64,000 nt of DNA, taken from the NCBI RefSeq assembly GCF_000691865.1, contig NZ_JMIO01000006.1, forward strand, positions 1 to 64,000. Direction: 5' to 3'. The notes beneath the pieces were generated by a model. It made no database searches, was not told the origin of the DNA, and was given only the letters and a program-made list of their open reading frames with translations. The translations under genes and the position numbers were made by a program. Source of the DNA: Methanoculleus sp. MH98A. GTDB lineage: Archaea > Halobacteriota > Methanomicrobia > Methanomicrobiales > Methanoculleaceae. Positions 5,985-54,532 of this stretch are shown here, one piece after another; position 1 is the stretch's first letter, and every line of letters starts with the position of its first letter.

Positions 5985-6262
5985 TATCCCACAGTCACTA
6001 ACCCCTTCAACGGCTTTCGTGGTGGTATCGCCCCTGGGGGAGGGGCTGACGGGGAGTGCGAGCGAAGCGAGTTTGAGCACCGATAGGTGCGAGGTGCGAA
6101 CAGAGTGAGCATGAGAAGACCAAAGGTCTTCGAGGGGGGATTCTCCCCCCTCCCCTGTCTCTACCCCGTAAGGCTCTACCTGTAACCCCCACTCGAAGAC
6201 CTTCGGTCTTCTCGAACTCCGGACATCCCGTCCGTCGCACCCCACCCGCATCAAAAACCACA
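5985..6262 (-). repeat. GC-rich modular palindromic repeat, copy A (inverted orientation)
   Basis: This intergenic stretch (the gene gap is 5846-6308) matches, as a reverse complement, the repeats at 21.6-22.0 kb, 25.45 kb and 54.1-54.4 kb. Shared blocks are the end module GGCGATA then CGAAAGCCGT, the block CCCCGTCAGCCCCTCCCCC, small hairpins such as GCACCGATAGGTGC and GAAGACCTTCGGTCTTC, and a GGGGGGA/TCCCCCC arm. Short ORFs across it differ between copies, so I treat it as non-coding. The edges are approximate. Confidence 0.75.
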
Positions 6263-10833: not shown

Positions 10834-11931
10834 ATGGTTAAGACCACCGTGTCCGTAATTAAAGCAGATATAGGCAGTTTCCCGGGGCACTCCCGAACCC
10901 ACCCGAAGATTCTTGAGGTGGCCGCCCGGAGACTCAAGGAAGCGGAAGGAAGCATCCTCATCGACTCGTACGTCACCCACTGCGGTGACGACCTCGAGTT
11001 GATCATGACGCACACTAAAGGGGAGGACAATGAAGAGATCCACAAGCTGGCGTGGGATATCTTCATGGAATGCGCCGGACTCGCCAAGGAGATGAAACTC
11101 TACGGCGCCGGGCAGGACCTGCTCGGAGATGCGTTCAGCGGCAACGTCAAGGGGATGGGCCCCGGTGTCGCCGAGATGGAGTTCGAAGAGCGGGGTTCCG
11201 ACCCGATCCTGATCTTCATGGCCGACAAGACCGAGCCGGGAGCGTGGAACTACTTCCTCTACAAGATATTCGCCGACCCCTTCAGCACGTCCGGCCTCGT
11301 CATCGACCCGTCGCTGCACGAAGGATTCACCTTCGAGGTCCACGACGTCATAAAGAAGCGCAAGATCCTCTTCAACACACCCGAAGAGTCCTACAGCCTT
11401 CTTGCCTATATCGGAGCGCCGAGCCGCTACGTCATCAAGTACGTCTGGAAGAGGGACGGCGTCATCGGAGCGTCCACCAGCACCCAGCGGCTGAACCTGA
11501 TGGCCAGGCGGTACGTCGGGAAAGACGACCCGGTCATGGTCGTCCGGGCGCAGAGCGGATTCCCGGCGGTGGGCGAGGTCATCGACCCCTTCAGGACGCC
11601 CATCCTCGTGGCCGGCTGGATGCGCGGCTCGCACCACGGGCCGTTCATGCCCGTCGGCGTCTGCGACGCAAACTGCACGCAGTTCGACGGACCGCCCCGG
11701 GTCATCTGTCTCGGGTTCCAGGTCTGCAACGGAAAACTGATCGGGCCTGCGGACATGTTCGACGACCCGGCGTTCAACCGCGTCCGCGACCAGTGCTGCG
11801 AGCTCTCCAGCGTGCTCCGGGCTCACGGGCCGTTCGAACCGCACCGCCTCTCGCTCGAGGAGATGGAGTACACCACCCTCCCGGGCGTCGAGAAGCAGTT
11901 CAAGGACCGCTGGGAAGACCTTCCCGAGTAA
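10834..11931 (+). CDS. fbp: Bifunctional fructose-1,6-bisphosphate aldolase/phosphatase
   Basis: Archaeal class V enzyme (365 aa) that condenses triose phosphates to fructose-1,6-bisphosphate and then dephosphorylates it, making gluconeogenesis one-way. The N-terminus VIKADIGSFPGHSRTHP carries the conserved metal and phosphate ligands (Asp, His). The segment RYVGKDDPVM (Tyr 227, Lys 230) corresponds to the catalytic Tyr/Schiff-base Lys pair of characterised family members. Further conserved blocks are AGWMRGSHHGPFMPV and DGPPRVICLGFQ. Length is typical. Start chosen from GGTGAT with 3-base spacing. It stands alone, followed by a T-run. It supplies hexose phosphates, matching the nearby RuBisCO-based nucleoside/pentose metabolism only loosely. 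Confidence 0.97.
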   Translation: MVKTTVSVIKADIGSFPGHSRTHPKILEVAARRLKEAEGSILIDSYVTHCGDDLELIMTHTKGEDNEEIHKLAWDIFMECAGLAKEMKLYGAGQDLLGDAFSGNVKGMGPGVAEMEFEERGSDPILIFMADKTEPGAWNYFLYKIFADPFSTSGLVIDPSLHEGFTFEVHDVIKKRKILFNTPEESYSLLAYIGAPSRYVIKYVWKRDGVIGASTSTQRLNLMARRYVGKDDPVMVVRAQSGFPAVGEVIDPFRTPILVAGWMRGSHHGPFMPVGVCDANCTQFDGPPRVICLGFQVCNGKLIGPADMFDDPAFNRVRDQCCELSSVLRAHGPFEPHRLSLEEMEYTTLPGVEKQFKDRWEDLPE

Positions 11932-11932
11932 T

Positions 11933-11941
11933 TTTTTTTTA
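11933..11941 (+). terminator. T-run terminator after fbp
   Basis: A run of eight to nine T residues starts two bases after the fbp stop codon, the typical archaeal U-rich termination signal. Confidence 0.6.
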
Positions 11942-12039
11942 TTGCCGGCGGTTGCCCGCGGCGCTTTATCCATTTCAATCGTTTGTGAATAGCCCCGGCC
12001 GCACCGCACGGTGCCTTCCGGAACTAAACGGCCCACCGG

Positions 12040-12216
12040 CAGCAGCACCTAACGGGGCCGCACCTCCCACCGACCGCCGAAGGCGGGCGCTAGTCGGCAG
12101 CGCCACCAGGCAATGACGCACCTCCCACCGACCGCCGGAGGCGGTCGGTAGTCGGCAGCAGCACCTAACGGGGCCGCACCTCCCACCGACCGCCGGAGGC
12201 GGTCGGTAGTCGGTAA
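12040..12216. repeat. Three tandem hairpin-bearing repeat units
   Basis: Three units of about 58-61 bases (about 12040-12100, 12101-12158, 12159-12216) share CACCTCCCACCGACCGCC, AGGCGG and TAGTCGG. Units 2 and 3 each form a near-perfect hairpin CCGACCGCC-GGA-GGCGGTCGG; unit 1 has two to three substitutions in the arm. Units 1 and 3 also share AGCACCTAACGGGGCCG, whereas unit 2 begins differently. The array fills most of the 325-base gap between fbp and the Sm-like gene and ends about 40 bases before its ATG. Confidence 0.85.
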
Positions 12217-12256
12217 TAGGAAAACTTAATGCATGAACATAACCATATAAGAACAG

Positions 12257-12493
12257 ATGGTTAATGGTATCGTACTCCCTGTGAAGAAGGTTTTTTCGCT
12301 CGTAGACTCTAAAATCACCGTCGAGATCAAGGATGACGGCAGGAAACTCCAGGGACGGCTCGTTGCGGTGGATGAACACCTGAACCTGCATATGGACGAG
12401 ACCACCGAGTTTACCGGGGAACAGCGGGGCCGCACCCTCGGAACCGTCGTCATCCGCGGCAACAATATCCTGACCATTGCGCCCCTGCTCTGA
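12257..12493 (+). CDS. Sm-like (LSm) RNA-binding protein
   Basis: A 78-residue archaeal Sm-fold protein expected to form a heptameric ring that binds U-rich RNA. The Sm1 motif region (KITVEIKDDGRKLQGRLVAVDEHLNLHM) and the Sm2 motif (GTVVIRGNNILTI) are both complete; the N-terminal helix is VNGIVLPVKKVFSLV. The start lies after an A+T-rich stretch (CATATAAG, and AACTTAATG further up), so the transcript is probably short-leadered. The winged-helix gene follows after 5 bases on the same strand, an operon. The tandem hairpin array lies immediately upstream. In many methanogens the Sm gene is followed by a ribosomal protein gene, so this partner is noteworthy. Confidence 0.93.
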   Translation: MVNGIVLPVKKVFSLVDSKITVEIKDDGRKLQGRLVAVDEHLNLHMDETTEFTGEQRGRTLGTVVIRGNNILTIAPLL

Positions 12494-12498
12494 TAGCC

Positions 12499-12840
12499 AT
12501 GTCCGACCAGGAGGAAGAAGCACTCAAGGTTATCCAGTCCCATCGTCAGGGAGTTCTCCAGAGCGAACTCTGGAAACTTCTCGATATCGACAGCAGGAAG
12601 TGCTCGAGGATCGTGAAGCGGCTGCTTGATGCCGGGTTGATCGAACGCATCGAGTTTCGCAGCGACGGCATCAAGACCTACCTGTTACGCGCGAAGAAAC
12701 GCGCGATCGATCCCTGCATCATCCTTGCGGGAGGAGAGGTTCTCCCGTGCATCGGCTGTGATCAGGAGTGCACCCCGGAAGAGTGCGCACTCCTTCTCGA
12801 CTGGATGTACCAGCTTGCTCTTGAAGAGTATCAGGAGTAA
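12499..12840 (+). CDS. Winged-helix regulator with C-terminal cysteine cluster
   Basis: A 113-residue protein with an N-terminal winged helix-turn-helix (about 1-65): LKVIQSHRQGVLQSELWKLL, then IDSRKCSRIVKRLLDAGLIE, like MarR/Lrp-type archaeal regulators that read through a wing (FRSDGIKTYLLR). The C-terminal half contains CIGCDQECTPEEC (C at about 87, 90, 94, 99), a candidate iron-sulfur or zinc site that would make it a redox or metal sensor; that is inference. It overlaps nothing but starts 5 bases after the Sm-like gene, so the two are very likely co-transcribed. DNA target and signal are unknown. Confidence 0.75.
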   Translation: MSDQEEEALKVIQSHRQGVLQSELWKLLDIDSRKCSRIVKRLLDAGLIERIEFRSDGIKTYLLRAKKRAIDPCIILAGGEVLPCIGCDQECTPEECALLLDWMYQLALEEYQE

Positions 12841-21430: not shown

Positions 21431-21612
21431 TGGGGCGCGGGGGTTCCGGTGCGGTTTTTAAAGGGTATAGTCCGCTGACTGTAAGTATCCGGGCGGATCG
21501 TGGAGCAAAATGCCATGTCTCGCAAAGTACTGTCCTTTGAGACATCGTTCAACCCCTTGCACGGATTACCATCGGCTTCGCACCTTCGATACTCTAGCTC
21601 CGTTTCTCCGAA

Positions 21613-21992
21613 CCATCGCTTATCGCCACGCACTGCCCCCGCCCCTCGCGGGCGGGGTGCGACGCTCCGCTAGGAACGACCGCCGCAGGACGGGAGTTTG
21701 AGAAGCCATCAGGCTTCGAGGAGCAGAGTTTGAGCACCGAAGGTGCGAGTGAGGAGCGCGAAGCACGGGCGGGGTGCGACGGACAGACCGTCCGGAGCTT
21801 GAGAAGACCGGAGGTATTCGAGTGGGGGTTACAGGTGTCCTTTTGTGCGGTAGAGACAGGGGAGGGGGGATGCTCCCCCCTCAAAGGCCTTCGGCCTTCT
21901 CGTGCTCCGTTCCTGTCGGAACATCGCACTCCCCGTCAGCCCCACCCCCAACGGCGATATCTCCTCGAAAGCCGTGCATGGGTGTACTATCA
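21613..21992 (+). repeat. GC-rich modular palindromic repeat, copy B
   Basis: The longest copy. It begins with TATCGCCACG and ends ACGGCGATATC then CTCGAAAGCCGTGCATGGG, so the ends are inverted. Inside are GCACCGAAGGTGC, GAGAAGACC, the long match to copy A (CGAGTGGGGGTTACAGGT, GTAGAGACAGGGGAGGGGG), and CCCCGTCAGCCCCACCCCC. The remaining bases of the 21431-22152 gap before and after it (about 180 and 160 bases) show no gene. Confidence 0.8.
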
Positions 21993-22152
21993 GATACACA
22001 GGACGGAACCTGCAGGTAGAGGGTCAGAACGAAGAATGTGCGGGAAACAATGAGGAGCCGTTTCAGATGATGCGGCAGGAAAAATCTAGAAGATATTAGA
22101 TATCAAAAACCCAGCACTGGAGAAAAGGAAGTATAATTCCCGTCCAGCCACG

Positions 22153-25333: not shown

Positions 25334-25453
25334 TTTTTTTGCCCTGAATGAGGCACGGTTTTTCCAAGGAGTTGTTACTCTCTTTCGTTGGCCTCCGGTG
25401 CGTTGCGTTTTGGGCGATTGCCGGAACGGGTATGAACGTGGCAAGATTCTGTA

Positions 25454-25565
25454 CAGTGGACTGTGGGGATATCGCCACGGAGGGGGGTGGGGACAGGGGA
25501 GGGGGGAATACTCCCCCCTCCCCGTCAGCCCCTCCCCCAAGGGCGATAGCCACCACGGTCCACTG
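25454..25565 (+). repeat. GC-rich palindromic repeat, copy C (short form)
   Basis: A 112-base compact copy. The ends are inverted repeats: CAGTGGACTGTGG plus ATATCGCC at the left against GGGCGATAGCCACCACGG plus TCCACTG at the right. The centre is GGGGAGGGGGGAATACTCCC followed by CCCCGTCAGCCCCTCCCCC. It lacks the GCACCGAAGGTGC hairpin modules of copies A, B and D, so it looks like the minimal core. The rest of the 25334-25681 gap shows no gene. Confidence 0.8.
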
Positions 25566-25681
25566 CACCGGGCTTTCCCCTCGCTTCAGTCGCCCTGTTC
25601 GTCGTGGCTAACTCACAACTTCAGGCGTATAATCCAGGGTATTTGCAGTCTCACTCACTCGAAATAGTATCCAAACCCCCC

Positions 25682-54024: not shown

Positions 54025-54126
54025 ATGGGTAAAGACTACAAGTCTTGACTGGTGAGCCTCGGGTATTGTATGCTTTTCACGTAAGCGAGAGATGAAGCGA
54101 TCCGAGAGCGTGGAAAAATCCCAGTA

Positions 54127-54416
54127 CAGTGGACCGTGGGAGTATCGCCATGGGGGAACGACGCTCCGCAGGAGCGGAGTTCGAGCACCGAAGGTGCGAG
54201 GCGCGAACGCAGTGAGCGTGAGCACCGTTAGGTGCGAGGAGGGGCTGACGGGGAGTGCGATGGTTCGTGGAACCGGAGCTCGACCACCGTCAGGTGAGGA
54301 AGGGGGCTTGCCCCCCTCGAAACTCTTCGAGTTTCTCATGCTCGCTGCGCTCGCACTCCCCTTTGTCCCCACCCCCCATGGCGATACCCCCTCGAAATCC
54401 GTAAATGGGGTATAGC
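54127..54416 (+). repeat. GC-rich modular palindromic repeat, copy D
   Basis: Begins CAGTGGACCGTGGGAGTATC (the same end as copy C) and ends CCATGGCGATACCCCCTCGA then AATCCGTAAATGGGGTATAG. Internal modules include GCACCGAAGGTGC, GCTCGCTGCGCTCGCACTCC, GGGGCTGACGGGGAGTGCGA and GGGGGCTTGCCCCC. Orientation equals copies B and C. The remaining bases of the 54025-54532 gap show no gene. Confidence 0.8.
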
Positions 54417-54532
54417 AGGTAGCAAGTACCACCGGCGATTCCGCATGCCGATAACGTCCCCGGAAAAACCCTATGATATTAGCAAGGTTGCGGTGAATCT
54501 GCCGGACTGAGGCATTCGGCCAAAAAAAGATA

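What the first reader, a model, noticed from the sequence alone, without database searches (positions are those of the whole stretch)
12040..12256. Tandem hairpin array in front of the Sm-like gene
Three 58-61 base units each able to form a CCGACCGCC/GGCGGTCGG hairpin stand directly before the Sm gene. Sm-like proteins bind RNA, so if the array is transcribed it could feed back on the Sm mRNA; alternatively it is a mini-repeat or terminator array for fbp. Unit 1 is diverged while units 2 and 3 are nearly identical, suggesting recent duplication.
Basis: partly seen in the sequence, partly recalled or inferred. Interest (0 to 1): 0.5.

Follow-up and report, generated by a model that had tools for sequence, protein, structure and literature searches.

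The report
Archaeal DNA hairpin module, tandemly repeated
The repeats in front of this archaeal RNA-binding-protein gene are real, lie outside its messenger RNA, and appear to be a tandem copy array from a large, apparently undescribed class of DNA hairpin modules scattered through Methanoculleus genomes.

Summary
The array is real: three 58-bp units at 12037-12214, found once in its own genome. It lies between the fbp T-run terminator and the conserved Sm promoter, so it is not part of an Sm mRNA started there, and the feedback idea is not supported. Each unit holds two hairpins; the second is a 12-bp stem joined to a 3-bp helix through an invariant TC/TC mismatch. Across 11 species the arms change while pairing is kept. 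The same grammar recurs in a dispersed module family in 33 of 35 Methanoculleus genomes (80 modules at 24 loci in 400 kb sampled from one). A model built only from dispersed modules hits the orthologous fbp-Sm gap in 5 of 32 genomes; the window's own array is reached only through those intermediates. Loops on the GA strand favour GNA/GNNA with a C-G closing pair, the stable-DNA-hairpin type, not RNA GNRA. RAYT transposase is absent from 28 of 35 genomes. Best reading: a locally amplified, DNA-level member of a REP/BIME-like archaeal hairpin class whose promoter-proximal copy is best preserved. Mobility and promoter function are inferred, not shown.

The parts
12037..12214 (+). whole tandem array, three 58-bp units (TC strand is +, GA strand is -)
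   Evidence: TRF and the repeat finder; only copy in own genome by BLAST
12037..12094 (+). unit 1; second hairpin partly decayed (9 of 12 pairs)
   Evidence: model R1 62.5 bits
12095..12152 (+). unit 2; first hairpin decayed, second hairpin 11 of 12 pairs
   Evidence: model R1 56.4 bits
12153..12214 (+). unit 3, promoter-proximal, best preserved
   Evidence: model R1 75.9 bits at 12158-12214 (R1 was built with it)
12158..12177 (+). first hairpin of unit 3 (loop TAAC on +, GTTA on -)
   Evidence: structure of A2, 6 of 8 pairs Watson-Crick
12178..12214 (+). second hairpin of unit 3: outer 3-bp helix 12178-12180/12212-12214, TC/TC joint 12181-12182/12210-12211, inner stem 12183-12194/12198-12209
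   Evidence: covariation in A2
12219..12231 (+). conserved BRE/TATA-like promoter core of the Sm gene
   Evidence: motif at the same distance in all 31 parsed genus gaps
11932..11940 (+). run of 9 T directly after the fbp stop, probable archaeal terminator
   Evidence: sequence; T run of at least 5 in 20 of 27 parsed gaps
10834..11931 (+). fbp, fructose-1,6-bisphosphate aldolase/phosphatase
   Evidence: PF01950 E 2.7e-177; NF041126 over cut-off
12257..12493 (+). Sm-like (LSM) protein gene
   Evidence: PF01423 67.4 bits, cut-off 23.4
5990..6250 (.). dispersed composite hairpin element with modules 6061-6090(-) and 6197-6239(+)
   Evidence: model R2 E 5.7e-6 and 2.4e-4
21560..22010 (.). dispersed composite element with four modules
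   Evidence: model R2 E 3.7e-7 to 8.6e-6; absent at the orthologous place in G010
25440..25585 (.). short foldback form of the composite element, outer inverted repeats without a module
   Evidence: sequence; no R2 hit here
54110..54450 (.). dispersed composite element with modules 54157-54197, 54202-54235, 54256-54297 (all -)
   Evidence: model R2 E 1.2e-15, 4.5e-8, 3.5e-8

Best explanation
The array is a tandemly amplified relative of a genus-wide class of short DNA hairpin modules in Methanoculleus. A module is a small hairpin (GCACC-TNNC-GGTGC type) followed by a second hairpin whose inner stem is joined to a 3-bp outer helix through TC/TC (GA/GA on the other strand). SHOWN: the array, its place upstream of the Sm promoter motif, covariation of the arms, the dispersed modules, their loop and flank rules, and a statistical link through intermediates at the same gap. 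INFERRED: modules multiply as folding single-stranded DNA and copy numbers change by slippage or unequal exchange; one module sat in or reached the fbp-Sm gap in an ancestor and was amplified there; the copy next to the promoter is kept because it does something at DNA level there (boundary, roadblock or protein site), while upstream copies decay.
For: Single-locus array in own genome; all matches of the array DNA in 10 of 35 genus genomes lie in the fbp-Sm gap. The recognisable last unit ends 41-43 nt before the ATG in 15 of 15. A2 (11 terminal units): 91.2% of cells paired, 18 cells in 6 pairs changed on both sides, 0 of 500 shuffles as high. Dispersed modules: A4, 41 both-side-changed cells, 99.5% paired (inner stems partly selected by regex); outer-helix positions, not selected, pair in 16 of 18 and 15 of 18. 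R2, built without any gap sequence, hits the gap of G002 (30.3 bits, E 1.9e-7), G025, G010, G026, G024 at E<1e-3, 5 of 32; control 314 kb outside the genus: one hit at E<=1, 11.7 bits. Sample of 400 kb of G007: 80 modules at E<=1e-3, 24 loci, one a strict 46-bp tandem array. GA/GA or TC/TC flanks on 55 of 624 hairpins. GA-strand triloops GNA 25 of 58 distinct against 102 of 1104 control, tetraloops GNNA 10 of 33 against 55 of 1172. Terminal second hairpin at least as well paired as every upstream copy in 9 of 9 multi-unit gaps.
Against: R2 alone reaches the window's own array at only 11.7 bits (E 0.13 in 64 kb), the same score as the best control hit; the link needs orthologous intermediates. 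The array's second-hairpin loops do not follow the GNA rule, and its first hairpin is not flanked by TC. R1 was built from terminal units, so its higher scores for them are circular. No insertion with target-site duplication was found, no mobilising enzyme identified, and nesting is modest (5 of 45 modules enclosed by a stem of at least 6 bp, control 2.8%). Loop and pairing counts treat related copies as separate.
Confidence: 0.62

Rival explanations
1. A structured RNA: the array is transcribed (read-through from fbp, or antisense from near the Sm promoter) and acts as a non-coding RNA or untranslated region, possibly bound by Sm.
For: Strong covariation; read-through from fbp would carry the array. 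The - strand is predicted to fold better than + in the array's last unit (-41.0 vs -30.1 kcal/mol).
Against: Sm promoter motif lies downstream. Mismatches show G-T 5, A-C 8 over 300 pair cells, so neither strand shows the wobble excess of an RNA. GNNA tetraloops of the dispersed class are mostly not GNRA (3 of 10 distinct). No Rfam hit.
Confidence: 0.2
2. A plain minisatellite: a local inverted repeat that became tandem by slippage, without relation to the dispersed modules and without function.
For: Copy number and sequence turn over fast: G006 has seven units, G003 one, several genomes none; no BLAST match elsewhere in the genome.
Against: R2 hits in 5 of 32 gaps; shared first-hairpin core and TC/TC syntax; both-side changes that keep pairing.
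Confidence: 0.2
3. A transcriptional boundary: hairpins back up the fbp terminator and shield the Sm promoter from read-through.
For: Position between the T run and the promoter; last hairpin ends 41-43 nt before the ATG in 15 of 15.
Against: About half of the genomes lack it, including G009, G014, G031 with only 93-105 nt between stop and promoter motif; archaeal termination as recalled needs a T run, not a hairpin. Compatible with the best explanation as its function.
Confidence: 0.25
4. REP elements moved by a RAYT (Y1) transposase.
For: Dispersed palindromes of 40-60 bp in high copy, often in opposite orientations within one place.
Against: Y1_Tnp absent in own genome and in 28 of 35 genus genomes; G033 with 19 Y1 matches has no module at E<=1e-5; no constant GTAG tag.
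Confidence: 0.07

Closest known systems
REP/BIME elements (GTAG- and CGTC-tagged palindromes, Di Nocera 2013, PMC3733652; abstract, outline and passages read)
   Same: short dispersed palindromes, high copy, often paired in opposite orientation, variable stems; CGTC families also lack a dedicated transposase
   Different: described there in bacteria (the word archaea occurs only in two references); here two-hairpin modules with an invariant TC/TC joint and covarying 3-bp helix, longer foldback composites and nested copies; CGTC directly follows the stem in only 7 of 14 rows of A4
Miniature inverted-repeat elements (review PMC10969869; passages read)
   Same: dispersed, non-coding, outer inverted repeats on the composite element, present/absent at orthologous places
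   Different: no target duplication and no parent transposase found here; internal content is swapped and inverted between species at one place
Tandem satellites of M. marisnigri (PMC6749651; passages and section 10 read)
   Same: tandem arrays; that paper lists families of 45- and 51-nt repeats in this species, possibly including the 46-bp array of G007
   Different: its Table 2 reports tandem families only; the parts read mention no hairpin grammar or dispersed modules, and the supplements could not be read
Stable DNA mini-hairpins d(GNA) with C-G closing pair (PMC5815330, passages read; Hirao 1994 and Yoshizawa 1997 seen only as references in PMC11101458)
   Same: loop and closing pair preferred on the GA strand
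   Different: those are test-tube oligonucleotides; here the motif recurs in a genome

Membership tests
REP element (RAYT-associated) | resident REP-associated tyrosine transposase (Y1_Tnp) | tested here: not met
   0 in own genome; 7 of 35 genus genomes have any, 6 over cut-off
REP element (RAYT-associated) | dispersed palindrome in many copies | tested here: met
   for the dispersed modules: 80 in 24 loci of 400 kb; not for the array's own sequence; extragenic location could not be proved
REP element (RAYT-associated) | constant GTAG or CGTC tag at one end | tested here: not met
   constant part is GTCG after the stem; CGTC in 7 of 14 rows of A4
MITE | terminal inverted repeats | tested here: met
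   composite elements at the orthologous 6-kb place share outer inverted repeats, read by eye; not seen around the fbp-Sm array
MITE | target-site duplication and empty site | tested here: inconclusive
   one place absent in G010 (111-nt gap) but flanks too diverged to define a duplication
Structured RNA known to Rfam | match at gathering score | tested here: not met
   0 in window; only tRNAs and an eL15 leader in six loci with modules
Dispersed Methanoculleus hairpin-module class (defined here) | HP1 plus outer helix, TC/TC joint, inner stem | tested here: met
   terminal units of 13 genomes by structure; A2 consensus
Dispersed Methanoculleus hairpin-module class (defined here) | hit by a model made only from dispersed modules | tested here: inconclusive
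   met in 5 of 32 orthologous gaps at E<1e-3; window array itself E 0.13
Dispersed Methanoculleus hairpin-module class (defined here) | GNA/GNNA loop on GA strand with C-G closing pair | tested here: inconclusive
   first hairpin of window units 1 and 3 has GTTA; second hairpins do not follow it

The most novel reading that the evidence does not exclude
A new kind of archaeal genome parasite or chromosome component: a self-similar DNA hairpin module, optimised to fold as single-stranded DNA (GNA/GNNA loops, GA/GA joints), that multiplies without any RAYT, inserts into loops of its own kind and flips between inverted repeats, fills tens to over a hundred places per Methanoculleus genome, and has been recruited upstream of the Sm promoter.
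Probability: 0.3. Interest if true: 0.85.

Novelty: new variant of a known kind. Interest (0 to 1): 0.6.

Why it matters
It would show that archaea carry their own REP/BIME-like hairpin repeats, built to rules that fit folded DNA rather than RNA and apparently without the transposase that explains bacterial REPs. Because stems covary inside one genome, the family is a natural experiment on what keeps palindromes perfect: selection, transposition or hairpin-templated repair. The fbp-Sm gap gives a single, orthologous place where copy number and decay can be followed across species, next to a well-defined promoter motif.

Tried and rejected
Feedback on Sm mRNA: rejected, promoter motif lies downstream. 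RNA strand from wobble bias: no bias, 5 G-T vs 8 A-C. RAYT: rejected. Rfam: nothing for the array or modules. Phage or plasmid carriers of a 380-nt composite element: no match. ORF-based proof that elements are intergenic: not usable, 1574 of 3257 module bases fell in greedily called ORFs, probably made by the repeats themselves. Orthologous empty sites: only one clean absence (G010 at 21.6 kb), too diverged for a target duplication; the 25-kb and 54-kb places had no usable pair of flanks in the fetched stretches. MAFFT misaligned G002 and G015 in A1; they were dropped from A2 and kept only in the hand count; G010 and G025, with reduced units, were left out of both. One search's script missed the terminal second hairpin of G032, G010, G025, G015, G002 and misread that of G018; for these the hand count or the sequence was used. 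One search left out the tandem-array copies and some weaker modules (45 of the 80 modules given). A strict TATA pattern in the order-wide set matched 58 of 80; the other 22 show A/T-rich stretches at the same place by eye. Papers: ten full-text searches showed no description of these elements; only the held open-access library was searched and no supplements were read.

Full report
WHAT IS THERE. The window lies in a Methanoculleus-like genome (G000, contig C6; nearest named relatives, e.g. Methanoculleus sp. FWC-SCC3 with fbp 99.5% identical). Between fbp (10834-11931) and an Sm-like gene (12257-12493) stands a tandem array, 12037-12214, period exactly 58, three units. It is the only copy of its sequence in the genome. 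Either units exchange segments or unit 3 is the preserved form and the other two decayed in different halves.

WHERE IT LIES. The fbp stop is followed at once by nine T, a probable archaeal terminator; a T run of at least five follows in 20 of 27 parsed gaps. The Sm gene has a conserved AAAACTTAAT-like motif starting 36-37 nt before its ATG in all 31 genus gaps in which the script parsed the ATG, with or without an array. By the usual spacing (recalled), transcription starts a few nucleotides before the ATG. The array ends 42 nt before the ATG, so it is upstream of the promoter motif and outside an mRNA started there. This removes the basis for feedback on Sm mRNA; read-through from fbp is not excluded.

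RELATIVES AT THE SAME PLACE. Sm was found in 32 of 35 genus genomes; all 32 gaps were fetched and read. fbp is directly upstream in 28 of them. A recognisable last unit occurs in 15 of 32, always ending 41-43 nt before the ATG; two of these (G010, G025) are reduced. G005 and G016 keep remnants by eye; the rest have none that I could recognise. Copy number runs from one (G003) to seven (G006). Eleven aligned terminal units (A2) support one structure: an 8-bp hairpin, then a 3-bp helix, TC/TC, a 12-bp stem. 91.2% of 251 cells pair; 18 cells in 6 pairs are changed on both sides (0 of 500 shuffles as high). Two more genomes, G002 and G015, have quite different arms (20 bp in G015) with pairing kept. 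In 9 of 9 gaps with two or more units the terminal second hairpin is at least as well paired as every upstream copy, strictly better in 7.

DNA OR RNA. Over 13 genomes, the stems hold 271 Watson-Crick, 5 G-T, 8 A-C and 16 other cells. An RNA read from one strand should favour G-T over A-C in that strand; there is no such bias either way. The numbers are small.

THE DISPERSED CLASS. Model R1, built from A2, also gave weaker repeated hits elsewhere. Their sequences share the grammar GCACC-TNNC-GGTGC, TC, a 3-bp helix, TC/TC, a stem. A 145-nt query from one of them matched 34 of 35 genus genomes. The window itself holds composite elements near 6.0, 21.6-22.0, 25.5 and 54.1-54.4 kb; those at 6.0, 21.6-22.0 and 54.1-54.4 kb contain R2 modules. 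In 400 kb of G007 (one contig of 2,478,101 bases, the size recalled for M. marisnigri JR1; PMC6749651 gives 2.48 Mb) there are 80 modules at E<=1e-3 in 24 loci. If that stretch is typical this means some 150 places per genome. One locus there is a strict tandem array of the module with period 46, a direct parallel to the fbp-Sm array. In the order, R2 hit 40 of 199 genomes at E<=1e-5: 33 of 35 Methanoculleus, one other genus of the family with 27 hits (G122), and six genomes with one or two hits.

RULES OF THE CLASS. In 400 kb of G007, 55 of 624 perfect hairpins (stem at least 6) are flanked by GA/GA or TC/TC, the two commonest flanks, where equal use would give about 5; a first-order random control had 7 TC/TC among 417 hairpins. 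Fourteen aligned modules (A4) pair in 99.5% of cells, with 41 cells changed on both sides. Their inner stems were partly chosen for pairing; the outer-helix positions were not, and they pair in 16 of 18 and 15 of 18 modules. On the GA strand, among distinct stems, 25 of 58 triloops are GNA (21 with C-G closing) against 102 of 1104 in other hairpins, and 10 of 33 tetraloops are GNNA (all with C-G closing) against 55 of 1172; only 3 of the 10 are GNRA. GNA with a C-G closing pair is a known stable DNA loop (PMC5815330, passages). This points to folded single-stranded DNA of the GA strand. Five of 45 modules are enclosed by another stem of at least 6 bp (control 2.8%).

LINK BETWEEN ARRAY AND CLASS. 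R2, made only from dispersed modules, hits the fbp-Sm gap of G002 (30.3 bits, E 1.9e-7), G025 (24.3), G010 (18.9), G026 (17.8) and G024 (16.9), 5 of 32 below E 1e-3. In 314 kb of loci from outside the genus (56 loci; one, L078, labelled Methanoculleus but diverged) there was one hit at E<=1, 11.7 bits. The window's own array scores 11.7 bits as well. So the array joins the class through orthologous intermediates and shared structure, not by its own score. This is the weakest step in the argument.

CHANGE OVER TIME. At the 6-kb place the composite element is present in G000, G003, G005, G008 and G010 with related outer inverted repeats but different inner modules, and the inner block is turned round in G003 and G008 (by eye); G001 has a relic. 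At 21.6 kb it is present in G000, G007 and G012 and absent in G010. The family is thus active on an evolutionary scale, but no single event with a target duplication was caught. Y1 transposase is missing from own genome and from 28 of 35 genus genomes, and the genome richest in it (G033) has no module at E<=1e-5.

VERDICT. The finding is real and misread in mechanism. Most likely it is a locally amplified DNA hairpin module of a REP/BIME-like archaeal class with new features, whose copy next to the Sm promoter is best preserved. The class was not found in print in the library searched nor in Rfam. Mobility, the enzyme, and any effect on Sm or fbp expression remain untested.

Noticed in passing
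window 5990-6250, 21560-22010, 25440-25585, 54110-54450: Composite foldback elements with outer inverted repeats and strings of hairpins, members of the dispersed class.
   Followed up: yes
L188:9793-10435 (G007:C1:1429793-1430435): Strict tandem array of the dispersed module, period 46, about 14 copies.
   Followed up: partly
6-kb place in G000, G003, G005, G008, G010: Inner block of the composite element stands in opposite orientations in different species between related outer inverted repeats, like an inversion switch.
   Followed up: partly
L109 (G016 fbp-Sm gap): An insertion of over 1 kb in the gap right beside a remnant of the first hairpin; by eye it looks like an IS605-type tnpB gene. 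Not tested.
   Followed up: no
G000:C81:10791-10949(-), L093: A second LSM gene in the genome; the window's Sm protein scores 40 bits against the NCBIfam small nuclear ribonucleoprotein model with cut-off 101, so it is probably a divergent paralogue.
   Followed up: no
G122 (same family, other genus): 27 R2 matches outside Methanoculleus, so the class is not strictly confined to the genus.
   Followed up: no
window 12499-12840: Small winged-helix-like protein gene directly after Sm, 5 nt apart; a possible regulator of the promoter next to the array.
   Followed up: no
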